Below are positions 3,383 to 29,963 of a DNA stretch of 64,000 nt, one piece after another; within the stretch, counting starts at the first letter, position 1; the number at the start of each line of letters is the position of its first letter. The position numbers and the translations under genes were made by a program. The notes below the pieces were generated by a model that made no database searches, was not told where the DNA came from, and saw only the letters and a program-made list of their open reading frames with translations. The stretch spans positions 26,326,894 to 26,390,893 of the forward strand of contig CM020618.1 of NCBI GenBank assembly GCA_009829735.1, read 5' to 3'. This DNA is from Pyropia yezoensis. Its lineage: Eukaryota; Rhodophyta; Bangiophyceae; Bangiales; Bangiaceae.

Positions 3383-4180
3383 GGGGGCTGTGGAGAGGGG
3401 GAGACGCGTCGTGGGGGGGGGGGGGCGTAGGCTCTGCACGGGAGACAGCCGGCAAGGGCGGGGGGGTCCCTTTCGCCCTGCGGAGCCTTTCTCTCTTTCT
3501 TTTTTCTTCTGCGTGTCCAGTCTGGCCGCCGTGTCCCGCCCGTCGTTCTCTTTTGGGGTCTTGGCCCTGGCAGTGGGAGCTGGCAAAAGAGGGAGCGGGA
3601 GGGGGGGGAGCGCCGTTGCCGACGTCGACCCCGCTCCACTTGACATGGCGTCGTCTGGTGCCGCCGTGGGGGGTTGGGCACTGCGGCAGACCACCGCTGC
3701 CGCCGCCGCTGCGGCGGCGGCGGCGGCAGCGCGCCCACGCGGGTGGGCGGTGGCCCGTCGTGGCACCCCGTGTGCTGTTGGCGACAGCGGTCGCAGCTGG
3801 GAGGGAGGTAGGACAGGGGCGGGGGGGGGGGGGGGCGTGAGCGGTGACGCTGCGCGTGCCCGCCGCCCGCCGCCCGCCGCCCGCCGCCTGCCCGCCCGCC
3901 GTCAGCCGCCCACACCGCCCATGACGGCGGGCCACCACAGCGGACAGGCGACGGCGCATGCGGCGACGGCAAAAGCCGTCGCTCGCGGCCGGGAGAGGAG
4001 GAGCGGTGCATCGGGCGGGAAAACGGGCGCCGTGCCGCGGCGGCCGCCCCCCTCCGCGTTTGGATGCCCGCCGCCGCTACGGACGGCAGCGGGACGGGCC
4101 TCCGTCCCCCTCACGACGACCCGCGCTTCCTGCTCTCTCCGCCCCCCCCCCCCCCCCCCCCGCCCCCCCCCTGTCCCCCG
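3383..4180. other. Intergenic, C/G-tract rich
   Basis: No gene recognised. It holds several pure G or C runs, a pyrimidine-rich patch near 3485-3520, a GCC/GCG microsatellite near 3700-3730 and a short-period repeat of the CCGCCCG type near 3858-3900. The C-rich stretch at 4140-4175 lies just beyond the stop codon of the leftward uracil phosphoribosyltransferase gene. Confidence 0.5.
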
Positions 4181-5626
4181 TTAGTCCGTACCAAAGTAGC
4201 GATCGCCAAAGTCCCCCACCCCCGGCACGATAAACTTTTTCTCATTCAGCGCCGCGTCCACCGCCGCCGTCACCACCGCCACCCGCGGGTGGGCGGCGTA
4301 GTAGGAGCGGAGCCCCCCCCGGGAGGCGAGGACGCTCACAAAGATGATCTTCTCCTCGGCCACCCCCGCGTCAACGAGCGCGGCAGTGGCCAGGCGGGCG
4401 CTGCCACCCGTGGCGAGCATCGGGTCGAGCAGCAGCACGTGGCGGGACGCGACGTCGTCGGGGAGTTTGGCAAAGTAGAGGGCGGGCGCGGCGGTCGCCT
4501 CGTCGCGCTGGATGAGGATCTTGCCGACGCGCGCGGCGCGGCAGCACGAGCGCAGGGCGGGCTCCATCGCCTCCCCCGCCCGGACAACCGAGACGCCCAG
4601 GATTTTGCCGGAAAACGCAACGCCCTCGTGCACCGCCCCGTCCACGGGGGTCGTGACCGTCACGGGGGAGACGGGGAGGAAGTTGAGAGCTGCACACAGG
4701 AAAGATGAGGCGGGGCGGGGGGGGGGGGGGGGGGGGGGGGCGGGGGGAGAAGGTCGCGCTCGCGTGTCGCCAGGCACACCAGGGCAGCGGCGGTTGGGGC
4801 GGGGGGAGGGAAGGGGTGGGGGGGGTGAGGGACATGGCGACGGTGGGGAGTTGAACAGGGACGGACCCAGCAGGGAGCAGCAAAGGCAAGACCAACGGTG
4901 GTGGGCGCGGCCCAGGACAGTGAAGACAGGCACGGTCAGACAAACAAGGAGAGCAGCCATAAGAAGACCGCGCCAGGCAGCACGGTCATGGTCACAGCAA
5001 ACCGGAAGAAGAAGCGGGGAAGGTAGCGTGGACGGGGGCCGTCGCAGGCCATCATTGTCTCCACACGCAGTCAGTAGCTGTGGCTGGCCGCCAGCAGTCA
5101 AGCCCACCTCCGCTCCGCCCCCCTCCACCACCCACCCACATCGATGCACATATCAATGCCCATTGCGTCGTCCCCCTCGCAGAGCTACACTCGCGCACGT
5201 GAGAGGGAAAAGAGGGCGAGCGGGTGAGGGGAGGGGGGGCGGCAGAAAAAGAGACGGAGAGGGACGGAGGTCGCCCGCGCCGGCGGTGGGCAGGGGGGGA
5301 CGGACAGACGTACCAAACTCGACGACCAGCCGGATCACCCGGTCTGCCGAAAAGACCCAGTCGGCGCGCGACGTGGCCGCCGACCGGATGATGGTCATGA
5401 GCGCCCGCATCTGCGCCGTCGGCGGGTGCACGTGCACGTTGGGGGGGAGGTCATCGTCGGCGGCGGCGGCGGCGGCGGCGGCAGGGGCGGCGGCGGCGGC
5501 GGCGGCGGCGGCAGGGGGGGTGTACGTAACCGCTCCCGCCACGGGCGGGGCGGCGGCGGCAGCGGCAGCGGCGGCGGCGGCGGCGGGCCGAGGTGGCGCC
5601 GCCGCGGCGGGGGAGGAGGACCCCAT
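4181..5626 (-). CDS. UPRT: Uracil phosphoribosyltransferase, two exons, 273 aa
   Basis: Converts uracil and PRPP to UMP in pyrimidine salvage; cytosolic in most eukaryotes. Exon 1 is 5626-5314 and exon 2 is 4689-4181; the 624-nt intron starts GTACGT and ends GTGTGCAG, and splicing restores VVEF-ALNFLP at the position where homologues read VVEE-(G/A)LN-LP. Exon 1 begins MGSSSP, carries a long poly-Ala leader of unknown role, then NVHVHPPTAQMRALMTIIRS and SADRVIRLVVEF. Exon 2 has GVSVVRAGEAMEPALR, KILIQRDEAT, the PRPP-binding loop LLDPMLATGGSA (about residues 187-198) and the uracil-site end GVGDFGDRYFGTD. The loop is the active-type DPMLATG, unlike the degenerate form in human UPRT. The start was chosen as the last Met before the conserved block that leaves the Ala leader intact; the frame is open further upstream. 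Same strand as the kinase gene behind it. Confidence 0.9.
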
Positions 5627-9283: not shown

Positions 9284-9538
9284 GGTGGGTGGTGGAGAGG
9301 AGGGTGGGGCTGGCTGTGTGCCAGATGTGCCACCAGTCGATCAAGGTTACGGGGGGGGAAGGGGGGGGTAGGAACGAGGTGTGTGGGGGGAGTGGTAGGC
9401 GGAAGTGCGGCCGAGACGGGCGGGAAGGTGACGACCGAATGGTAGTGGCACGCGCACGACGGTGGTGGGCGGTGAGGGAGCTGGCCAGAGAGCCAGCCAC
9501 AGCCCCATCCCCTGGGTCAAGTACAGCCGTCGCCACGG
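9284..9538. other. Probable promoter region of the PI-kinase gene
   Basis: Short stretch upstream of the leftward kinase start, running into repeat R2. I see no distinct promoter motif. Confidence 0.25.
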
Positions 9539-10065
9539 CCACGCAGAGAGGGGCGCCCCGGCCCGACGCGAGCGCACCACGGCGAACACCCTGTCCTCAC
9601 TGTCCGGGTCTCCCCCTCCGTGGCGGTGCGCTGCCTCCCCCCCCCCCCCCCCATGCAGTCGACGCGGGTTGGCTCCCCTTACCCGCGCTCTCCCGCCACG
9701 GCCATCAGCCGCGGCGGCTGGGGCTCGGCCATCCGGCGACGCGCGCAGCTTCCATCGCCTCGGGGGGGGGGGGGGGGGGGAGCGCCAGTCGTGACCGCGT
9801 CGGCCCGCAGCGGCAGCGGCCAGCGGGTGCGACGTGGAATGGAGTGGAAAAAACGCCGGCTGGCAGCAGGAGTGGCCCAAGTCGAGAGCCGTCGGTGCCC
9901 GCGGTGGCGGTGATGGTCGTGGCGGGGGGTGGTGAAATGGGGGGGTGGCCATCGCTGTGGCAGCAAGGATGGATGGAGGCACCCACGGGCTGCCATCGCT
10001 GGCCTGTCCGCTACACCAGCGGTGGTCTGCTGTGGGCCGCTCGGATGGACGCACCGGCCAATCAG
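9539..10065. repeat. Repeat R2, copy 1
   Basis: About 527 bp that recurs at 29399-29963 in the same orientation with only scattered substitutions and one internal length difference of about 38 bp near 9858. Both copies carry the same C-run (near 9640), the same G-run (near 9762-9780) and the tract around the ATGCAG/GTCGAC site. No long coding sequence is convincing, and I see no terminal inverted repeats or target duplication. It could be a segmental duplicate or a non-autonomous element. Confidence 0.75.
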
Positions 10066-14478: not shown

Positions 14479-14947
14479 TGTGGCAGTATTGACCCCCAGG
14501 TAGGGGGCAACACGTGCCATGCAAGGGGCGGCAGGCCACTAGCCTGACCCGTTCCTCCCCCTGCATTTGGGTCCATATTCCCGAAGTTTAGGATAGTTAG
14601 CTTAGTAGTAAATCCAACTTGGATTGGAGGGTTTTCTGCATTTATCGTCTTGAATATTCGAGTGGCCCGGTGGGCAGGTGCTGCGGTGCGAGATTCTGAG
14701 TCGCGAAATTCTGAGGGGACCCTGGGGGGATCAGGGGAGGGACAGCGGGGCTTGGCCTTGCTTCCCCGTCCAGATCAAGAAACTGTTGGACTACGCACCA
14801 TCTCCTTGTTTGTCAGTGGGGGGATTGCCCCACAACAGGGATAGAGTGTGTGCGACTTGCACTTCTTCCAGTTACCCCCGACACGTGAGGCAGCCCTTGT
14901 GTACCGCCCCAACTTGGATGTCGCGTGTGCGAGAGGTTTTTGCCACA
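14479..14947 (+). repeat. 5' LTR of element B
   Basis: 469 bp beginning TGTGGCAGTATT and ending TTTGCCACA; matches the copy at 27039-27503. The primer-binding site TGGTGGAGCAGCAGGGG follows two bases later, nearly the same as in element A. Confidence 0.9.
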
Positions 14948-15271: not shown

Positions 15272-17014
15272 GTGGGTGGGCCGAAGTCTGGCCACCGAAA
15301 GGTATACTCAACGGGAACGTCCCAAGGTGAGAGGACTGTCCCCGCGGGTCCCACTCGGGTTGGAACCAACTTTGGCTCGGAGCCGTCGCCAACTAGGCTT
15401 TTGGAGGACGAAGGACCTCCGTCGGTCAGTGATGGGCTCGCGCCCATGCCCCCGGTTGAGACCCCTGAGGATCGTGGTTACCCCTCAGGTGGACTCCCGG
15501 AGGCGGACCGAGACTCAACTGGAGTCGACAATCCACTCCTCGCGGAAACTGTCCGTCGGGAGGCGACCAATGTGTTGCGGCAGACTTTGCCGGACCTGGT
15601 AGTCACGATGACGAATACTATTCTGAATCAGATTGTGGCGAGTTTGCCAGATGGCCTTAATGTCCAGACCGGATTTGGGCTTTCGAGCCCGCAGGCGCAG
15701 GGGGGATCCCTCCCCACGCCTGTCTCCGGTCGCCCCGAACCGGGGGCGACCCCTGTGACTCCCAACGAGGGAGCCGCACTACTCTCGGTCGGGAGTACAC
15801 CCTTCACGGGGGAGTTCCCCTCGGAAACGCCGGCGGCTACACCAAGCTCGCCGCGGCAGACGACAGGCACTGCGGGTCAACTCACCCCATTGCCACAGCG
15901 GCTTTTCCCTCAACGTGAGGTGCCTCCCAAGATCCAGGTAGCCAACCCGGTCTACCAGAGGACCTTTGACTGTGAGACGTACGCCCTCCACAACAAATCG
16001 GTGGCGTACGGTCCTACTCAGCCCCGAGCCATGGGCCGTGCCGAGAAGAATGCACTTCAATCTTTTGGGCACAAAGCGGAGTGGGATGGAACTCCCCCCC
16101 TCCGTATCTTTGAGCTTCTACGTCGTTTCACAAAAGCCTGTGACGACAATGCCATAAGTGAAGGCATGGCTTTCTATATGCTACAGGAGTTTACGAAGGG
16201 CGCCCTCCGGACAGAACTTATGTCCGTCATGCCCAGTTCCTCAAGTGGAGGCGCTGGTGCGGTGACGTTCTATTTGGAGCTCGTCAACTGGTTGTTGAGA
16301 GCCATGGTGGATGAAGCAGCGCCGGTTTCTCAAGTTGAGAAGTTTGCGCAAGCTCACCAGGAGGAGACTGAGGACGAGTTGTCCTTTGTGGAGCGGGTTC
16401 GTAAGCTCAACAATCTTTGTGGGTTTCTCCATCCACAAGCTGTAGTGAAGAGTCGGTTTGTGGAGGGACTCCATTGGTCAGTCCGGAAGGAGGCTCGGGA
16501 GCATAACACCGCCCGGGCGACACTGGCCGATTTGACTAGGTTCGCCTACCGCAGAGGTGAGGCCTACCGCAAGTTGGGGGAGGAACAACGCCGGGAGCGT
16601 CAGGCCGAGTTGGCCAAGGAACGCGAGGAGGCGCGCCAGGCCAGAGAGTTGCGAGAGGCACGCCGAATCCGAAAGGAGAGGGTAGTAGCTGCCATGAGAA
16701 CTTCCCAGGATACCTTGTCGGCTTCCCCAGTCGGGAAGACCCCTCCGGGATCTGACAATCGGTGTTGGAACTGCAACTCCGATGGACACTGGGCATATGA
16801 TTGCCCCATGTTGAGTAAACGCATTCAACAACTTGTTAAGAATGCGAGCAAGAAGTCAGCTACGAACGAAGTACGTTCGCGCCGCGAGGGTGGGCCTAGA
16901 CCGGTAGTGGCGGTCGTGACACCCTCGGCGGAGGGGGCGGACTCGTCGTCCTCGGACTCGTCGTCTTCCCCTTCGCCCTCAGACTCAGACGCCAAGTCGG
17001 CGGGAAACGAATGA
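15272..17014 (+). CDS. Element B gag region
   Basis: Fossil gag, about 580 codons. It has a Pro/Thr-rich N-terminal part, a capsid-like helical part (around ELLRRFTKACDDNAISEGMA), a long charged helix rich in Arg/Glu/Ala, and a CX2CX4HX4C zinc knuckle (CWNCNSDGHWAYDC) near residue 498, followed by a Ser/Asp-rich tail. Its end overlaps the pol start by the four bases ATGA at 17011-17014. Confidence 0.8.
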   Translation: MGGPKSGHRKVYSTGTSQGERTVPAGPTRVGTNFGSEPSPTRLLEDEGPPSVSDGLAPMPPVETPEDRGYPSGGLPEADRDSTGVDNPLLAETVRREATNVLRQTLPDLVVTMTNTILNQIVASLPDGLNVQTGFGLSSPQAQGGSLPTPVSGRPEPGATPVTPNEGAALLSVGSTPFTGEFPSETPAATPSSPRQTTGTAGQLTPLPQRLFPQREVPPKIQVANPVYQRTFDCETYALHNKSVAYGPTQPRAMGRAEKNALQSFGHKAEWDGTPPLRIFELLRRFTKACDDNAISEGMAFYMLQEFTKGALRTELMSVMPSSSSGGAGAVTFYLELVNWLLRAMVDEAAPVSQVEKFAQAHQEETEDELSFVERVRKLNNLCGFLHPQAVVKSRFVEGLHWSVRKEAREHNTARATLADLTRFAYRRGEAYRKLGEEQRRERQAELAKEREEARQARELREARRIRKERVVAAMRTSQDTLSASPVGKTPPGSDNRCWNCNSDGHWAYDCPMLSKRIQQLVKNASKKSATNEVRSRREGGPRPVVAVVTPSAEGADSSSSDSSSSPSPSDSDAKSAGNE

Positions 17015-19128
17015 CCGTTGGAGCTGGCCGTCCTAAGCTCACAACGGCAGCCTCGGCCAAGTGGGTCAAGAGGACGAACCAACCCTGCCGGATACTGCGC
17101 CGACCTAAGGGAGTCCGCCCACCTCGGGTAGGACTCCCCAAGAACGTAAACCCACGTCGGGTCATCGCGGTGCTGACGGGAGAGATCCTCCAGGTGGCTG
17201 GACGGGTGCAACTAGCCCCCGGCCGTGCCTGTTGTGCCCGTATCGTACTTGATACCAGGTCAGGAGCCTCCTTGATACGCAAGTCGCTATTACCAAAGGA
17301 GATGACGCTCCAACTCTGGAGGTCTAAAGCTGACCATATGATTGACATCAGTGGTGGGGTACTTCCCATTGATGGTGCCGTGACCGTACCAACTAGGCTG
17401 GGAACCCATGAGGTCGACGTGACCTATGGAGTAGTCGAGAATATATCGGTACCACTGCTTCTGGGTACCCCTTATGTTGTTACACAAGTGCCTTTGATTT
17501 GTGGCCCTGAGTATTGGGTCAAGTTGATGAATGGGGAGACCATCCCCATCCTTGGTAAGGAAAAGTCTGTGGCTCCCGTGACAGTCTTACAGTCGAAGCC
17601 TGTTTGCTCCATGAGAGAACGGTTTACTGCTACCCTGCGTTTAGCCCGTAAAGTCACGTTGCCCCCCAACTCGGTGGCGCACGTTGACGTTGTAACTGAT
17701 TATACGGGGAACGGGTTGGTGCACCCTTACCCCCGTCTTGCTCGCAAGCACCAACTGCATGTTGCCCTTGGCACGATGGACTCCAAAGCCGGAGTCCCGT
17801 GGAGGATCCAGGTGATGAACCTGAGCTCGTCGCCCCAGTACTTCAAGTCGGGAGCCAAGTTCGGCTATATCGACCAACATGAGGGACCAGTAGTAGCGGT
17901 CACCCTCAACGCGGGCGCAAGTAGCGACCCGAAGTCCGGAAAGGAGAAGCAACAAGCTAAGTCGGCCGCCTCTCCTCGGCCCCATGTGAACATGGAGAAT
18001 GTTCCCCCCATGTTGAGGGTTCAAGATGAGCGCCTATTGGACCAATATCACAAGTTGTGGGATGGTCAATTGGGACTCATGAGAGCCACCCAACACCGGA
18101 TCGAGTTGAAACCCGGTGCACCCCCTATACGCCAACAACTGTACAGGGGAGGGCCACGTTCAAGGGCCCTCGTCAAGGAGCAAGTCCCTCGCATGGAGGC
18201 CCTCGATGTGATCGAGGCCAACAACGCCGAGTGGGCGAGTCAGGTGGTTATTGTCCCCAAAGTTGATGGGACCCCATGGTTCTGTATCGACTACCGTAAG
18301 CTCAACGAGAGCACGGTGAAGGACAGTTATCCCCTACCTAGGATGGACGACTGTCTGGACTCTCTCGGGGAGGCAAACGTGTTCTCTACCCTAGATTGTA
18401 ACGCGGGGTATTGGCAAATTCCCATTGCCCCGGAAGACAGGCATAAAACTACCTTTACCTGTCACTGTGGTACCTACCAAAGCAAACGACTACCGTTTGG
18501 ACTGTGCAACGCGCCGGCAACTTTCCAGCGCGCTATGGACATGATTCTGGCCGGAGTACGGTGGCAGATCTGTCTCGTGTACCTAGGCGATATCATTGTG
18601 CTCTCCCGAAGTCCGGAGGAGCACATTGGCCATCTTGGCCAGGTGTTCAAGCTACTTGCTGACGCCGGTGTGTCACTGAAGGCGAGTAAGTGCCACCTCT
18701 TCGCTCAGGAGGTGGAATACTTGGGACATGTTGTCCGTCCGGGGCGCCTCAGTGTCAACGAGAAGAACTTGAGGGCCATCCGTAGGGCTCAGTACCCCCG
18801 GACCCGGACCCAGATGAGGAGATTCCTCGGGATGTCTAACGTGTATCGATGTTTCACCAAGGGCTTCGCCAAGGTGGCGAAGCTGCTGAATGAGCTAGTG
18901 AGCTCGACGCTACCGAAGAACCTGCCTCCCCCAAGTCGGGTGGAGCAGGAGTCCTTTGAGACTCTTCGGGACCTTCTTCTGAAGCCCCCTATCTTGGCTA
19001 TTCCCAGGATAGGAGGCCACTACATCCTGGACGTGGATGCTAGCTACGACCAACTTGGTTGTGTGTTGCCTCAGCAGCAGCGGGACAAGGAGTACTTGCC
19101 CGTGGGACGCTCCAGTAAGGGGCTGAAC
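17011..19128 (+). CDS. Element B pol, first part (protease, reverse transcriptase)
   Basis: Fossil pol. The aspartic-protease region (around LDTRSGASLIRKSLLP) is followed by a Ty3/gypsy reverse transcriptase with VIVPKVDGTPWFCIDYRKLN, the palm region around 18580-18600, YLGHVV and the thumb/connection region, continuing to the hAT-like insertion at 19129. The start ATG overlaps the gag end, an arrangement known from some fungal gypsy elements that use stop-restart translation. Confidence 0.85.
19121..19128 (+). repeat. Target-site duplication, left (GGCTGAAC)
   Basis: Eight bases identical to 22776-22783, directly flanking the hAT-like element. The duplicated bases are part of the conserved pol sequence of element B on both sides, which confirms the insertion point. 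Confidence 0.75.
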
Positions 19129-19147
19129 CAGGCCCTACCATGAGTAT
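19129..19147 (+). repeat. hAT-like left terminal inverted repeat
   Basis: CAGGCCCTACCATGAGTAT, matching the reverse complement of the right end with one mismatch. Confidence 0.75.
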
Positions 19148-19499
19148 CATTTTTAGAACCGAGTATGGGTATTGCCTCAAGTTAATTGCACGAGTACCAG
19201 TACCTGAATTTTGGTCTGGCGATTACGAGTATGTGCCATTGCGAAATCGGCTCGAGTAGCGATATTTCATCTACTCGAAACTTCGAGTATTTTGAGGTTT
19301 GGAACGGCCTCGAAAGGAACGGTTGTGCTCTTATGTCGGTTGCCACCAGTCAGTAGAGCAGGGCCCACGGCCGTCACTGAGTCTCGTGTGAGCGCCGGCT
19401 GAAAGCCGCACGGCGTGCTGCGGTGGCATCTGAAGGCGTGCTGCGCTGCCGCCCGAGCCACCGAGGACTAACAGAGACGCAAGCACGACGCCGCATGTA

Positions 19500-20500
19500 G
19501 CCATTGACAGTGTGTTTATTCGTTTGGGTTGCAGCCAAGATAAACAAACAATAAAATACAAGGAAAGCACCCCGCGCATGTCGAGCATGGGCGGGGCCGA
19601 GTAGCCCACGAAAGGCGACAAGATGTGCGTCAGCGGTACGGGCGCAGGGAGGATGGTGGGAGGCGCGAAAGACGACGGACGTGCCGGCCCGGCGGGAGGG
19701 AGAACAGAGGAGCGGCGGGGTCGTACATAAAGGGCTCGGCGCGCAGCAGCCTCCGCCCCGCGGCTCGGCTCGCAGCCGCCGCCGCCCGACACAGCCCGCC
19801 TCTCCTCGGCAGCCCTCTCCTGTCGGTTGGGCAGTCGCGTCAGTCGGCGCCTCTCCCGCTCATGAGGAGTACCTCGCTCGCCGCAACGACCCAGTCAATC
19901 GATTGGAGTTACCCAGTGAAGAGACGACAAACAACGAAGCAGACTTCCGCGGGCGGGCTCCTTCGCTGAAAGGCAACCACTCTCGAGGTCGTCCGGCGCG
20001 AAAGTCTAGCACTCCGCGTCCCCTTTACACCTACCTTTCAGCAAGCACCTTCCCCCTCTGCCCCCCCACCCCAAGATGGCATCTACCCCCCCCCACCCCC
20101 ATGTTCTCATTAACCAGGTCCTGCCATCCTGCGCCCGCTTCTGCAGTAGTGTCGCTGCCATCAGCTCTGCCGCCGCAGCTAAAGCCACTGGCTGTGGCAG
20201 CGCCGGTGGGCTTGCGGGGTCGGTGGCGCCGGCGGGATGCATTGCAGGTACAGCGTCTGCGTGCACGCCAGGCGGGTGCCATTGCCGCTCACAAGACGAA
20301 CGAGGCAGGCGTCCTGGTGTGCCCGCTACGTGTGCGGGTGCCCGCAAGGTCTCGTTTGCGCGCCTGTTGGGGCGGCGGGCGCATCCCTTCCGCCCCCTTC
20401 CCCTCCCCCCCACTCCAATCCCCGATTACCTCCCCATCCTCCCCCCCCACCTCCCTGGGGCTGCGTCAGCTGCCGCCGCCGCCGCCGCCGCCACGTCGTC
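19500..20500. other. Interior of hAT-like element, unassigned
   Basis: Lies between the left subterminal motifs and the sulfurase fragment. A short AT-rich patch with AATAAA near 19550 could be a terminator-type signal on the plus strand. Frames exist on both strands, but none matches a family I know; the block may be a second captured fragment. Confidence 0.3.
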
Positions 20501-20849
20501 GGCGGGGGTGGTGGACCACTCGCCATAGGGGAGGCGTCGCCGCCGCTGCCGCCGCCGCCGCTGCCTCGCCGCAGCGGTGCCCGCGAGCGTACCCCCCCCA
20601 CACGTCCGTGGCGGTCAGGCTCAGCACGTCTGCGCACGCCCCCCAATGGCAAGCGCAACCCCCTCACTCGGACTCCTCGACCGGCCTCACGAGCGACCGC
20701 GGCGGCACGCGGGCCGCGGTGAGCATCACATTGGCCCGCCACGCTGCGTCGTCAACGGGTGGCGCCGCGGCCGCCCCCACCGCCCGACGTATCGCCGCCG
20801 ACGACTGTGCAATGGTCATGAGCAGGGGCGCGCGGTTGGCGGACTACAG

Positions 20850-22180
20850 GTTGATCGGCGGGCGGTCCCGGTCGACGGCCACCCGCAGAGCGGGCCAGCG
20901 CGGCTCGAGTGGCGGCCGCCGCGGCGGCGGCGCGGGCGCAAATGGCCGCCATGCCGCCGACGGAGGCGAGGAGGTCCTGGCCAGCCGGCAGCGCGGCGAC
21001 GCCCAGGCATTGGGGGGTGCCCTTCTCGAGGCCCGCGGGGGGGGGGGAGCGCCACGGGGCGGCCGGCGCGCGCAGTCGGGGGCGCCACCGCAACGGTACC
21101 GCCGCCCCAGTGCAGCGCCGACGGTGGGGGGGCGGCGGCAGCGGCGCCGTTTGTGACCCCCTCTGCCGCCGGCGGGCGCGGAAGGTTGAAGAGCGCCCGC
21201 ACCGCGGGGGAGTGGCGCGCAAGCAGCAGCGCGCCGAGGCCGTTGTGGTCGGCAAAGAGCTTAAAAACGAGACGGCCACCGCGTCGGCGGCGGGGGTGCC
21301 CGACAGGTCCACCGGCCGCGTCGCGGCCGCCCTGGCCGCGTCCGACAGCGTCAGCACGAGGCGCGCCGAGGAAGGGGGGGGGGTCCCACGGCCCCCACCG
21401 CCGCCGCGACTGCACCCGCCTGCGCCACTACCCCTGTCCCCACCACGGCCGTTTCGCGGCAGCACCCCGCCGGCGCGCTTGGCACCCGCACACGGCGCCT
21501 GGACGGGAAATACGGTGCTGGCGAGGTTGCACTCCGCAGGCAGGACGACGAGCATAAACGGATGCAACCCCTTTCCTCCCTCCACAGCAGTTCCACCTCC
21601 TCCCCCCACCCCGCTCCCCCCCGCATCCCCCTACCTGACCACCTTACAACGCGCGGTGGCCATCCCCCCCCCTTCCACCGTCACCACACGCCCCCCATCC
21701 CGCACCGCATACCCCGCCACCCCCGCCGCCGAGTAGTGGTACCACCGGTGGACCACCGCCCCGTCATCGGGCGTGCACTGTAGGCGCTCGGCGGCCAGCT
21801 TGAGCGCCGCCGTCGCGCCCGCCGTCCACACCACCAAATGGGTGGCCGGGGTGACGCCAAAAGAGACCAGCACTCGCCGCCGCACCGCCTCGACGGATGA
21901 GAGCGCCGACGGGGGGGCCCGCACCGGGCCGAAGACCCGGCGTGGAAGGTTGCCGCCACCGCCGCAGCCGCCGCCGCTGCCGCCGCTGCCGCCGCTGCCG
22001 CCGTCGCCCCCGACGCCGCTGTCATTATCACCGTCGCTGTCGCTGTCGCCGCCGTCGGCGAGCGGGGGGGCCACCGCCGAGGGGGGGTTGGCGGTGACGC
22101 CCGCCACTAGCGCCGCCGCCACCGCCCGCACGTGGGCGTCTGCGTAGGGCGCCGCTGCGGCGGCGTCGAGGTTGGTCCAC
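20850..22180 (-). pseudogene. Captured molybdenum cofactor sulfurase fragment (MOCOS/ABA3-like)
   Basis: Reading leftward, blocks follow the order of the aminotransferase-V-like domain of MoCo sulfurase: TNLDAAAAAPYADAHVRAV (cofactor-domain start), RVLVSFGVTPATHLVVWTAG then ATAALKLAAE, VVLPAECNLASTVFP, AVAVSF with KLFADHNGLGALLLARHSP (region of the pyridoxal-phosphate lysine), LHWGGGTVAV, and LEKGTPQCLGVAALPAGQDL followed by LASVGGMAAI. The reading frame changes at least once between AVAVSF and KLFADHNGLG, consistent with a lost base, and again after GGGTVAV, so it is decayed. A gap with a possible GT donor (after 21636) and acceptor before the VVLPAECN block suggests a retained intron, which argues for DNA-level capture rather than retroposition. 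The C-terminal MOSC part is not recognised. Confidence 0.7.
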
Positions 22181-22707
22181 CCGCGCAGCCGGGACGCCAC
22201 GTCGGCGCGGAGCGCCGCAAACGCCCACATCCTTGCCCGCAGGGCCAGCGGAGTGAGCCAGAGGGCTTGCGCATTGGTTTTCAAACTTAGGTCGGCTGGC
22301 TCTCCTCCTGCTCCCCGTAAATTGAATGACCTCCTGTATCGGTGGGCTGCGGAGTCTATGTATCCTAACACTCGTGTTTCACAAACCATAGTCTCGCGGC
22401 ACTCCTCGCCACAGATAGCAATGAACTTTCTTGGCGCTCGTGCTTACAAGCTGGGCCGATATTTTGCTCCCTTGGCGGATCAGTCTCCATGAATACGCGC
22501 TCGTCGCACCATTTGTACGCTCTCACGCGAGCCAAAACCGATCCGTATAGTGAAAGGAAGGGCTCTCATTCCAGATGACTGTAGAACTGGGGCAGACAAA
22601 GGCTGTGAGCGGTGATCATAACCAGTACTCACTCGGCCGTATCTGCGAGTATGGTATCTGACTCTTTCAGCGGATCAAGTACCGTACAGAGCTCTCGGAA
22701 AAACGAC

Positions 22708-22729
22708 GAGTACGGGTATACCCGTACTC
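22708..22729. repeat. 22-bp perfect palindrome in hAT-like subterminal region
   Basis: Made of two head-to-head GAGTACGGGTA motifs, the same motif family that recurs across both subterminal regions. It could bind a dimeric transposase. Confidence 0.7.
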
Positions 22730-22756
22730 ACACCCGTGGGAATACTCACTCAAAAT

Positions 22757-22775
22757 ATACTCATGGTTGGGCCTG
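22757..22775 (-). repeat. hAT-like right terminal inverted repeat
   Basis: Reads CAGGCCCAACCATGAGTAT on the minus strand; followed by the GGCTGAAC duplication at 22776-22783. Confidence 0.75.
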
Positions 22776-24648
22776 GGCTGAACTCGGCTGAGAAGAACTA
22801 TGGAGTCACCGAGTTGGAAGGACTCGCAGTGGTGTGGGCGGTGACGTCACTTCGTCACTACCTAGAGGGTGAGAAGTTCCTCATCCGCTGTGACCACCGC
22901 GCGTTCCAGATCATCTCAAGACGGATTGCACGAACACCCGCCTCAACAGGTGGAGGGTGCGACTGGCACCCTTCAACTTTGATATTGAGTACCGACCTGG
23001 CAGGCAACATGCCCTTGCCGACGGCCTTTCTCGGGTACCTACCGAGGGGCTGGACACTAACCCAGTCGATGAGGACATCCCCATCCTGTGGGTAGCCACG
23101 CGCTCGGGTCAGGCGTTGGACCCCGAGGCGCCAAGGAACAAGAAGTACTTGCCCCTGTCCCTGGACGAGGTGGTGAAGGCCCAGGCCGAGAACCCCTTCT
23201 GCAAGTCGGAGAGGGATACGCTGGATACTGTGGCGGAGACGCGGTTCTTTATCGAAGGCGATGGCTTCCTCTTGAGGAGGGGGGTAATCCAGGGGACCGA
23301 ACAACTTGTCGTCACCGCATCCCTCAAGGACAGTATTCTTGAGAGGGAGCATAACGCTCCCACAGGTGGACACCTGGGGTCTAGTAAACTGTACCAGACC
23401 CTGAGGACCAGGTACTACTGGCCGTCCATGGTGGTGAACATCTACAGTTGGGTGGCTGCCTGCACAAGTTGTGCGCAGAACGGTCTGATGGAACGGCGGC
23501 CTACTACGGCTATGTTACTGTTCCCGGCCAAAGAGCCCTTTGCCGCGTTGGCAATGGACATCCTTGGGCCCCTGCCAGTGACCGAGGAGGGCAACCAGTA
23601 CCTCCTGGTCATCTGCGACCGCTTCACAATACGTACGCGAGCGATCCCTCTGGAAGAGATCACCGCCATCTTGGTCGTGTCAGCCTTCCTAGATCACTGG
23701 GTTGCCGCGTATGGCATCCCGGACAGTACACTATCGGACAATGGACCGCATTTTGCGTCCGTACTGTTTCAGGGAGTACTAGATATGTTGGGGGCTCAGG
23801 CAAACTATGCCGCCCCCTAAAACCCACAAACTAATGGGCAGGTGGAGCGCTTCAACAAAACTTTTGTTCGACAGCTGCGCCACTATGTGAGTGAGCACGT
23901 GAAAACGTGGGACCAATACATTTCTACTCTTACGACTGCCCACAATTCGCTGGTTCACTCATCTACCGGGGAAGTACTCCTCGCTTTTGTGACCCCCCGT
24001 CGCGTGCGGTCTATTGCCGTGCGGCGGCCGCTCCCAACTAGGGAGGACGGTTGCAGTACGCCTGCTCCCACTGAGAGTAAGGCGGAGTTTGTTGCTAGGC
24101 TTGAAAAACTCATCCCGAAAGTCAGGGCAGAGATGGACAAAGCGCAAAAGCGCTACAAGCGTACTTTTGACAAAAAGGTGCGTAACGCTAAGCATGTCCC
24201 CGAGCAGTGTGACTGGGTACTGGCTCAATCACACACCCCAACTGGGAGTAAGTTGCTGTTCCAGACGAAGGGGCCATACCAGGTCCCTCGCACAGGCAGA
24301 CGGCGGTTCACCATCGAAAGTGACGATGGGTTCCGCACAGTAAACGGACAGGACGAGGTCAAAGTTGCACCACCTCCTGCAGGCGACCCAGCTTGGGCGC
24401 GTGCGCTGGAAGCGTGGCGCCTGCCCTCTCTACCTGCGGCCAAACAAGGCCCGCAGGAGTACGTGTTCGATGAGTTCATCGACCACGGGTGGGATGAGGA
24501 CACCAACCGCCTCGTGTTGAGGGTGCGTTGGTTCGGCTATAAGGCCAAGGATGATACGTGGGAATACATGGAGGACCTTCTCGCTGAGAAGGTCCGGGCA
24601 TACTGCGCCCGGAATGATATAGACCCTAACTGCCCTCCCTCAACGTGA
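22776..24648 (+). CDS. Element B pol, second part (RNase H, integrase, chromodomain)
   Basis: Fossil pol after the insertion. It opens with the RNase H region (YGVTELEGLAVVWAV, CDHRAFQII), then the integrase HHCC zinc domain (EREHNAPTGGHLG to CTSCAQN), the integrase core (MDILGPLP, SDNGPHFASV, GQVERFNKT) and a C-terminal chromodomain (EYVFDEFIDHGWDE, VRWFGYKAKDDTWEYMEDL). The chromodomain places B among the chromoviruses, whose integrases are targeted to chromatin. Confidence 0.88.
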
Positions 24649-27038: not shown

Positions 27039-27503
27039 TGTGGCAGTATTAACCCCCAGGTAGGAGGGCAACACGTGCCATGCAAGAGGCGGCAGGCCAC
27101 TAGCCAGGCCCGTTCCTCCCCCTGCATTTGGGTCCATATTCCCTAAGTTTGGGATAGTTAGCTGAGTAAACCCAACTTGGATTTGAGGGTTTTCTGCTTT
27201 TATCGTCTTGAATTTTCGTGTGGCCCGGTGGGCAGGTGCTGGGGTGGGAGATTCTGAGTCGCGAGATTCTGAGGGGACCCTGGGGGGATAAGGGGAGGGA
27301 CAGCGGGGCTTGGTCTTGCTTCCCCGTCCCGACCAAGAACTGTTGGCCCGCACACCATCTTCTTGTTTGTCAGTGGAAGGATTGCCCCACAATAGGGACA
27401 GAGTGTGTGCGACTTGCACTTCTTCCGGTTCCCCCGACACGGGAGGCAGCCCTTGCGCACCGCCCAAACTTGGGTGTCGCGTGCGCGAGTGGTCTTTGCC
27501 ACA
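27039..27503 (+). repeat. 3' LTR of element B
   Basis: 465 bp, about 90 percent identical to 14479-14947, preceded by a polypurine tract and ending TTTGCCACA directly against repeat R1. Confidence 0.9.
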
Positions 27504-29388: not shown

Positions 29389-29398
29389 GGCGCCACTA

Positions 29399-29963
29399 CC
29401 ACGCAGAGAGGGGCGCCCCGGCCCGACACGAGCGCAGCACGGCGAACACCCTGTCCTCATTGTCCGGGCCTCCCCCTCCGTGGCGGCGCGCTGCCTCCCC
29501 CCCCCCCCGCCCATGCAGTCGACGCTGGTTGGCTCCCCTTACCCGTGCTCTCCCGCCACGGCCATCAGCCGCGGCGGCTGGGGCTCGGCCATCCGGCGAC
29601 GCGCGCAGCTTCCATCGCCTCGGGGGGGGGGGGGGGGGGGAGCGCCAGTCGTGACCGCGTCGGCCCGCAGCGGCAGCGGCCAGCGGGTGCGACGTGGAAT
29701 GGAGTGGAAAAAACGTCGCTGCCCAGATGGCAAGCGGCGGGGACGCCTGCTGGCCGGCTGGCAGCAGAAGTGGATTAAGTCGAGAGCCGACGGTGCTCGC
29801 GGTGGCGGTGATGATCGTGGCGGGGGCTGGTGAAATGGGGGGGGGGCCATCGCTGTGGCAGCAAGGATGTATGAAGGCACCGTCGGGCTGCCATCGCTGG
29901 CCTGTCCGCCGCACCAGCGGTGGTCTGCTGTGGGCCGCTCGGACGGACGCACCGGCTAATCAG
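29399..29963. repeat. Repeat R2, copy 2
   Basis: 565 bp matching 9539-10065. It begins about 10 bp after R1 copy 1 ends and finishes just before the protease fragment. Confidence 0.75.

What the first reader, a model, noticed from the sequence alone, without database searches (positions are those of the whole stretch)
19129..22775. Gene-capturing hAT-like element nested in a chromovirus, carrying a MoCo-sulfurase fragment
The insertion has short inverted ends starting CAGGCCC, an 8-bp duplication (GGCTGAAC) inside conserved pol sequence, GAGTA-rich subterminal regions, no transposase, and an interior with six ordered motif blocks of the MoCo sulfurase aminotransferase-like domain, including an apparent intron. 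Gene capture by non-autonomous elements is well known for Mutator and some hAT/CACTA elements in plants; an algal hAT-like case with a recognisable donor gene would be new to me.
Basis: partly seen in the sequence, partly recalled or inferred. Interest (0 to 1): 0.8.

Follow-up and report, generated by a model that had tools for sequence, protein, structure and literature searches.

The report
Gene-carrying hAT jumping element in nori
A cut-and-paste transposon in what appears to be the edible red seaweed nori has lost its own transposase gene, carries a piece of the seaweed's molybdenum-cofactor sulfurase gene instead and sits in several places; such gene theft is known in land plants, and here the seams and the donor gene can both be seen.

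Summary
Confirmed. Window 19129-22775 is a 3,647-bp non-autonomous hAT transposon (inverted ends 18/19; perfect 8-bp duplication) inside pol of a chromovirus-like LTR element. The genome matches Pyropia yezoensis. All five paired copies found have perfect, different 8-bp duplications; a 40-base match elsewhere looks like the unoccupied site. Relatives carry a hAT transposase where the cargo sits. The cargo is about 3 kb of a host MoCo-sulfurase-like gene, apparently full-length at C1:37.9184-37.9226 Mb. Four cargo copies share the right seam (3-bp overlap, about 120 bp before the inferred transposase start); the left seam is scrambled (a 138-bp donor piece out of order at a GCC tract). This favours template switching in break repair over the tandem-insertion model (inference). 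Two copies differ at 5 of 4,935 sites, so movement was recent. The window copy later lost about 1.36 kb of cargo, gained a 472-bp insert and drifts neutrally: not a gene. Gene capture by hAT elements is published (Pack-hAT; maize Ds2), so this is a new member of a known kind. Open: the 'apparent intron', and the donor's MOSC domains, which Pfam did not call.

The parts
14479..14947 (+). probable 5' LTR of the host retroelement (TG...CA ends); its pair is at 27039-27503, 8.0% apart
   Evidence: repeat pair; 37 of 464 sites differ; no matching short duplication outside
17011..19128 (+). left part of pol (RVT_1, RT_RNaseH_2), interrupted by the hAT element
   Evidence: with the flanks joined the frame stays open for 103 codons past the site
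19121..19128 (+). target-site duplication GGCTGAAC, left copy
   Evidence: single copy in the 40-base match at C1:36549358-36549397
19129..22775 (+). non-autonomous gene-carrying hAT element, 3647 bp
19129..19147 (+). left terminal inverted repeat, 18 of 19 to the right one
19129..19468 (+). left end and subterminal region shared with family members (89-93%)
19469..19940 (.). 472-bp insert absent from the sister copies, no target duplication seen; 98.5% to C1:25577982-25578456
19942..20534 (+). native internal element sequence on the left side; ends at a GCC tract where donor sequence starts
20535..20668 (-). filler: out-of-order piece of the donor gene (donor-locus 3454-3591, the GCACN...GHRCGG block)
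20669..20841 (-). donor piece from further downstream in the gene (donor-locus 2206-2378), 89.6%
20842..22225 (-). donor piece: class-V aminotransferase-like domain (donor-locus about 3738-5205); about 1.36 kb of donor that the sister copies keep is missing before it
22223..22225 (.). right capture seam, 3 bp (sense GGC) shared by element and donor
22226..22775 (-). right end with presumed transposase promoter and 5' leader, shared with non-capturing members
22776..22783 (+). target-site duplication GGCTGAAC, right copy
22957..23820 (+). right part of pol (Integrase_H2C2, rve)
23842..24648 (+). chromodomain-like region (24.6 bits, cut-off 25.1)

Best explanation
This is a Pack-hAT / Ds2-like element. 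Shown: copies with hAT-type ends carry, where relatives have the transposase gene, about 3 kb of a host MoCo-sulfurase-like gene in the transposase's direction, joined about 120 bp before the inferred transposase start; four such copies sit at four sites with four different 8-bp duplications, one of them inside a retroelement pol gene. Inferred: one capture gave rise to all four; it happened when the gap left by excision was repaired from the sulfurase locus with template switching (short overlap at the right seam, a 138-bp out-of-order donor filler at the left); a transposase supplied in trans moves the element. The cargo in the window is a decaying passenger with no coding function.
For: Ends and duplications: (5 of 5 paired copies). 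Probable empty site; open frame across the joined flanks. Transposase in relatives: PF05699 25.1 bits (cut-off 21.4) in L028; transposase sequence beside five family ends (C3:15.1, C3:12.0, C2:15.5 by domain; C1:17.4 and C2:16.1 by protein), all five antisense to the element, reading from the right end inward. Donor: 89.4% over 3,006 aligned columns to the C1:30.5 copy; PF00266 over cut-off in two donor blocks; homologues: Porphyra umbilicalis, 55% identity over 58% of the query, and proteins with PF00266, PF03473 and PF03476 at 33% and 29% identity over 80% and 96% of it. One capture: identical right seam in 4 of 4 cargo copies; same filler in the window, C1:30.5 and C2:7.59 copies, the fourth (C2:19.6) being 99.9% identical to C1:30.5. 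Neutral drift: nonsynonymous share in the window copy 0.701, expected 0.703; 2 in-frame stops and 3 frameshifting indels in its two blocks. Recent movement: C1:30.5 and C2:19.6 differ at 5 of 4,935 sites plus 2 gaps, with different duplications.
Against: No intact transposase of this subfamily was found: each of the six other loci at 76-87% identity has at least one stop in a matched piece, and the one frame without stops (C3:15.1) starts with about 60 residues that dozens of other places share, so it looks truncated (which scored only 87 of 1,396 candidates). Two transposase pieces of L051 and one of L030 gave no Pfam match (0 of 3). Donor identity: the MOSC family search of the whole genome gave two matches, neither at the donor locus; Pfam called no MOSC domain there, and its one hit on the third donor block is PF22807 in a low-complexity tail; the first homologue search found nothing. 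In the C2:7.59 copy the nonsynonymous share (0.592) lies below the neutral range (0.631-0.752; rank 0.0015); I read this as the donor's own constrained changes, but some past constraint on that copy is not excluded. Of the window copy's two stops one lies in the candidate intron, and one of its three frameshifts lies in a homopolymer run. The donor's frame changes at two C-runs. The place was not read beyond 40 bases. No transcript or small-RNA data.
Confidence: 0.88

Rival explanations
1. Capture by the tandem-insertion model: two elements landed on both sides of the sulfurase segment and were remobilised as one unit, as proposed for Pack-TYPE elements.
For: This is the model favoured for plant Pack-TYPE elements (PMC8903248, section 9 read).
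Against: No inner-end remnants seen at either seam, no end-like sequence near the donor locus in the scans, a scrambled 138-bp donor filler, and a right seam inside the transposase leader rather than at an end.
Confidence: 0.06
2. A retrogene: the cargo came from sulfurase mRNA.
For: None positive. If the donor is intronless, DNA and RNA origin look alike inside the gene.
Against: The seams look like DNA repair; the possible small intron (donor-sense 2171-2245) is retained in the copies, but that intron is unproven.
Confidence: 0.02
3. The window copy or a sister is a functional chimeric gene (transposase leader driving a sulfurase fragment).
For: Same orientation as the transposase, its leader kept; a 252-aa frame 21631-22389 (-) runs across the seam; the low nonsynonymous share of the C2:7.59 copy.
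Against: Neutral substitution pattern in the window copy and C1:30.5, stops and frameshifts in all three copies examined; the matching stretch in C1:30.5 and C2:19.6 has a TAG inside and an extra base before the seam.
Confidence: 0.04
4. The window fragment is the real sulfurase gene and the ends are chance.
For: None remaining.
Against: Apparently full-length donor elsewhere, recurring ends with duplications, probable empty site.
Confidence: 0.005

Closest known systems
Pack-hAT elements of maize and rice (Pack-TYPE transposons; PMC8903248, passages and section 9 read)
   Same: Non-autonomous hAT ends enclosing a host-gene fragment; several copies of one capture
   Different: Host is a red alga; cargo is about 3 kb; seams scrambled with filler, which does not fit the tandem-insertion model favoured there
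Maize Ds2 elements with captured gene fragments (PMC3260210, passages and section 19 read)
   Same: Interior of the autonomous element replaced by filler, including gene fragments; break-repair origin suggested there
   Different: Four copies with a traceable later deletion; the right seam could be read against non-capturing relatives
Relatives in the same genome: nine hAT-like elements (eight of 7.2-7.3 kb, one of 9.5 kb) with an open 886-aa frame and paired ends CAGGCCCTGTCATAAGTA
   Same: Ends differ at 2 of 18 positions from CAGGCCCTACCATRAGTA; transposase 52% identical
   Different: Open transposase frame; one search lists no match to the window element at these nine places, though it scored only 40 of 779 candidates; their duplications were not read
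Giant EnSpm elements with accessory genes in red algae (cited in PMC12477816, passages read)
   Same: Gene-carrying DNA transposons in red algae
   Different: Other superfamily; accessory genes rather than a captured host-gene fragment

Membership tests
hAT superfamily | 8-bp target-site duplication | tested here: met
   5 of 5 paired copies perfect
hAT superfamily | short terminal inverted repeats beginning CAG or TAG | tested here: met
   CAGGCCCWACCATGAGTAT, 18 of 19; the hAT end preference itself is recalled, from no call
hAT superfamily | hAT transposase in relatives with the same ends | tested here: met
   PF05699 in L028, 25.1 bits, cut-off 21.4; beside two further family ends and transposase homology beside two more; three other transposase pieces gave no Pfam match
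hAT superfamily | demonstrated transposition by that transposase | not testable with these tools
   needs excision or mobility assays
Pack-TYPE (Pack-hAT) | non-autonomous, no transposase inside | tested here: met
   six frames of the element given to Pfam gave only weak PF00266 in two
Pack-TYPE (Pack-hAT) | host-gene sequence between the ends, donor identifiable | tested here: met
Pack-TYPE (Pack-hAT) | cargo multiplied by transposition | tested here: met
   4 cargo copies with 4 different duplications
Pack-TYPE (Pack-hAT) | acquisition by tandem insertion and remobilisation (proposed mechanism, not a defining trait) | tested here: inconclusive
   seams scrambled, no inner-end remnants seen: disfavoured, not excluded
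chromovirus (host retroelement) | Ty3/gypsy-type pol with a chromodomain | tested here: inconclusive
   RVT_1, RT_RNaseH_2, H2C2 and rve over cut-off; chromodomain 24.6 bits, cut-off 25.1
MoCo sulfurase (donor gene) | class-V aminotransferase domain plus MOSC_N and MOSC domains | tested here: inconclusive
   aminotransferase over cut-off in two blocks; no MOSC match at the locus; but homologues bearing all three domains align over 80% and 96% of the query

The most novel reading that the evidence does not exclude
The seams are a readable record of hAT gene capture by template-switching break repair in a red alga, and because the cargo sits behind the old transposase leader in sense orientation, its transcripts (or small RNAs from them) could act on the host MoCo-sulfurase gene in trans.
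Probability: 0.1. Interest if true: 0.65.

Novelty: new member of a known kind. Interest (0 to 1): 0.42.

Why it matters
It extends hAT gene capture from land plants to red algae and offers a nearly complete set: donor locus, non-capturing relatives, four cargo copies and a probable empty target site, so the capture seams can be read base by base. That lets two published capture models be compared on one case. Among the rows listed by searches aimed at algal or hAT gene capture I saw no title or abstract reporting it in a red alga; the lists were partial (for instance 20 of 36, 20 of 40, 15 of 297), a haptophyte transposon paper was not opened, and the library lacks most subscription papers, so priority is not claimed.

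Tried and rejected
Homology search with the donor's C-terminal frame alone found nothing at E <= 1e-5 among 7,988 scored candidates, probably because low-complexity runs swamp the words. Other ends of six single-ended copies were looked for by duplication plus end pattern and not found (0 of 6). Two notebook remarks are superseded: '155 bp' from seam to transposase start is about 120 bp on recounting (131 nt from ATGTGG to ATGTCG; start codon inferred), and the idea that the in-frame ATG at the seam matters was dropped, since C3:12.0 reads GTG there and the transposase frame opens downstream. In the 3-mismatch end scan the reversed control is larger than the scan itself (923 against 61), so single 3-mismatch hits were ignored; only the paired ends around 9 of 9 open 886-aa frames are used. 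NCBIfam added only weak desulfurase matches below cut-off.

Papers: PMC8903248, passages and section 9; PMC3260210, passages and section 19; PMC7423979, PMC12477816, PMC13317346 and PMC8752119, passages; all others as search listings only.

Full report
Setting. The window lies at C1:26326894-26390893 of a 107.48-Mb genome. Its three large contigs (43.59, 34.33, 29.39 Mb) match the three scaffolds reported for Pyropia yezoensis, 43.6, 34.3 and 29.4 Mbp, genome GC 65% (PMC7423979, passages; window GC 66.7%). The best homologue of the donor gene is from Porphyra umbilicalis. I take the organism to be P. yezoensis.

The element. Window 19129-22775, 3,647 bp, flanked by GGCTGAAC on both sides, inverted ends 18 of 19. 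GAGTA/TACTC occurs 13 times in the outer 170+170 bp against 0.39 expected. It interrupts a pol with RT and RNase H on the left, zinc-binding domain and integrase core on the right, and a chromodomain just under its cut-off. With the flanks joined over one duplication the frame stays open for 103 codons past the site. A single 40-base match at C1:36549358-36549397 (3 mismatches, all in the first five bases) has the same place with one GGCTGAAC; that locus was not read further.

The family. A scan for the end (up to 2 mismatches) gave 21 places, reversed control 7; four of the 21 showed no further similarity. Five copies pair: the window, C1:30516173-30521108, C2:19587780-19592715 (both 4,936 bp), C2:7590073-7596246 (6,174 bp) and C2:22322468-22337193 (14.7 kb, right end split by a large insertion, no cargo match). 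Their duplications are GGCTGAAC, GTTTCGAT, GAGAAAGG, GTACCTTA and ATCAAACG, all perfect. Four of the five carry the cargo. Further single ends exist; for six of them no second end was found in the DNA held.

Relatives with transposase. PF05699 gave 73 matches in the genome. Three lie beside family ends (C3:15.107, C3:12.007, C2:15.491 Mb), and a protein search puts transposase sequence beside two more (C1:17.412, C2:16.118 Mb); all five read from the right end inward. In L028 the 489-aa frame scores 25.1 bits (cut-off 21.4); three pieces from L051 and L030 gave no Pfam match. Six other loci at 76-87% identity all have a stop in a matched piece (87 of 1,396 candidates scored). A second subfamily, 52% identical, has nine copies with an open 886-aa frame, and each of the nine is flanked by paired ends CAGGCCCTGTCATAAGTA, two differences from the pattern of the window family (lengths). 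It is a candidate source of transposase in trans; that is inference.

The donor. The cargo aligns to C1:37919103-37922104. On its minus strand that locus reads, in three frame blocks, the class-V aminotransferase-like region with SFYKLFGYPTGLGAL, a GCACN...GHRCGG block, and stretches resembling MOSC_N and MOSC (the names of these blocks are recalled). PF00266 is over its cut-off in two blocks; MOSC domains were not called, and the only hit on the third block is PF22807 in a low-complexity tail. A whole-genome MOSC search gave two matches, neither here. A first homologue search failed; the second, with a query joined from blocks, gave 26 proteins among 7,996 scored: P. umbilicalis at 55% identity over 58%, and proteins bearing PF00266, PF03473 and PF03476 at 33% and 29% over 80% and 96% of the query. 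I therefore call it MoCo-sulfurase-like; the last step rests on those homologues. The frame changes at runs of 14 and 17 C, so base-level intactness is open. PF00266 gave nine matches in the genome, three at this locus and six at five other loci, which I did not examine.

The seams. Right: non-capturing members read (for example) GTGGGC-CAGAGAG, all four cargo copies ATGTGGGC-GTTTGCGGCG; the donor reads GCGGCGTTTGCGG, so GGC is shared. The seam lies about 120 bp before the inferred transposase start. Left: element sequence runs into a GCC tract, then about 138 bp of donor 3454-3591, then donor from 2204 on; the same order is seen in C1:30.5, C2:7.59 (which lacks donor 4650-4927) and, up to its own deletion, the window copy. 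A donor piece out of order looks like a template-switching scar. This fits the break-repair idea stated for maize Ds (PMC3260210, section 19) better than the tandem-insertion model of Pack-TYPE elements (PMC8903248, section 9); it is inference from anatomy.

History. Over the shared cargo, window to donor 8.8%, window to C1:30.5 7.6%, C2:7.59 to donor 6.3%, window to C2:7.59 11.6%: the donor branch is short, the copies evolve faster. C1:30.5 and C2:19.6 differ at 5 of 4,935 sites and two gaps, yet have different duplications and flanks: recent movement. The window copy lost donor 2379 to about 3738 and has a 472-bp insert at 19469-19940. The LTRs of the host retroelement differ by 8.0%.

No coding function. 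In the window copy the nonsynonymous share is 0.701, neutral expectation 0.703 (range 0.624-0.778); in C1:30.5 0.674 (0.643-0.757); in C2:7.59 0.592, below its range of 0.631-0.752. The last runs against strict neutrality; the donor's own constrained changes are part of every comparison and weigh most on the least diverged copy, which is my reading, not a test. Stops and frameshifts occur in all three copies examined; one TAG at donor-sense 2177 is shared by all three and lies in the G-rich candidate intron.

Novelty. Pack-hAT and Ds2 gene capture are published for maize and rice. The searches named under 'why it matters' showed no red-algal case in the rows listed; they were partial. I rate it a new member of a known kind, with the readable seams as its main value.

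Noticed in passing
window 19469-19940: 472-bp insert inside the hAT element without a visible target duplication; 98.5% to C1:25577982. At three other places (L047, L048, L056) the same unit is followed by the first 34-36 bp of itself and a shared continuation.
   Followed up: partly
C1, C2, C3 (nine places): Nine hAT-like elements (eight of 7.2-7.3 kb, one of 9.5 kb) with an open 886-aa transposase frame and paired ends: a possibly active autonomous family. Their duplications were not read.
   Followed up: partly
window 9531-10065 and 29391-29963: A second pair of direct repeats (88.7%) outside the LTR pair; the retroelement may itself be nested in another one.
   Followed up: no
window 14479-14947 and 27039-27503: LTR pair, 8.0% apart, TG...CA ends, but no matching short duplication outside.
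   Followed up: no
L028 4203-5672: The first about 60 residues of this transposase frame match dozens of other places in the genome, so another repeat seems to have joined or inserted there.
   Followed up: no
C2:22322468-22337193: Family member of 14.7 kb whose right end is split by a large (about 10.7 kb) insertion.
   Followed up: no
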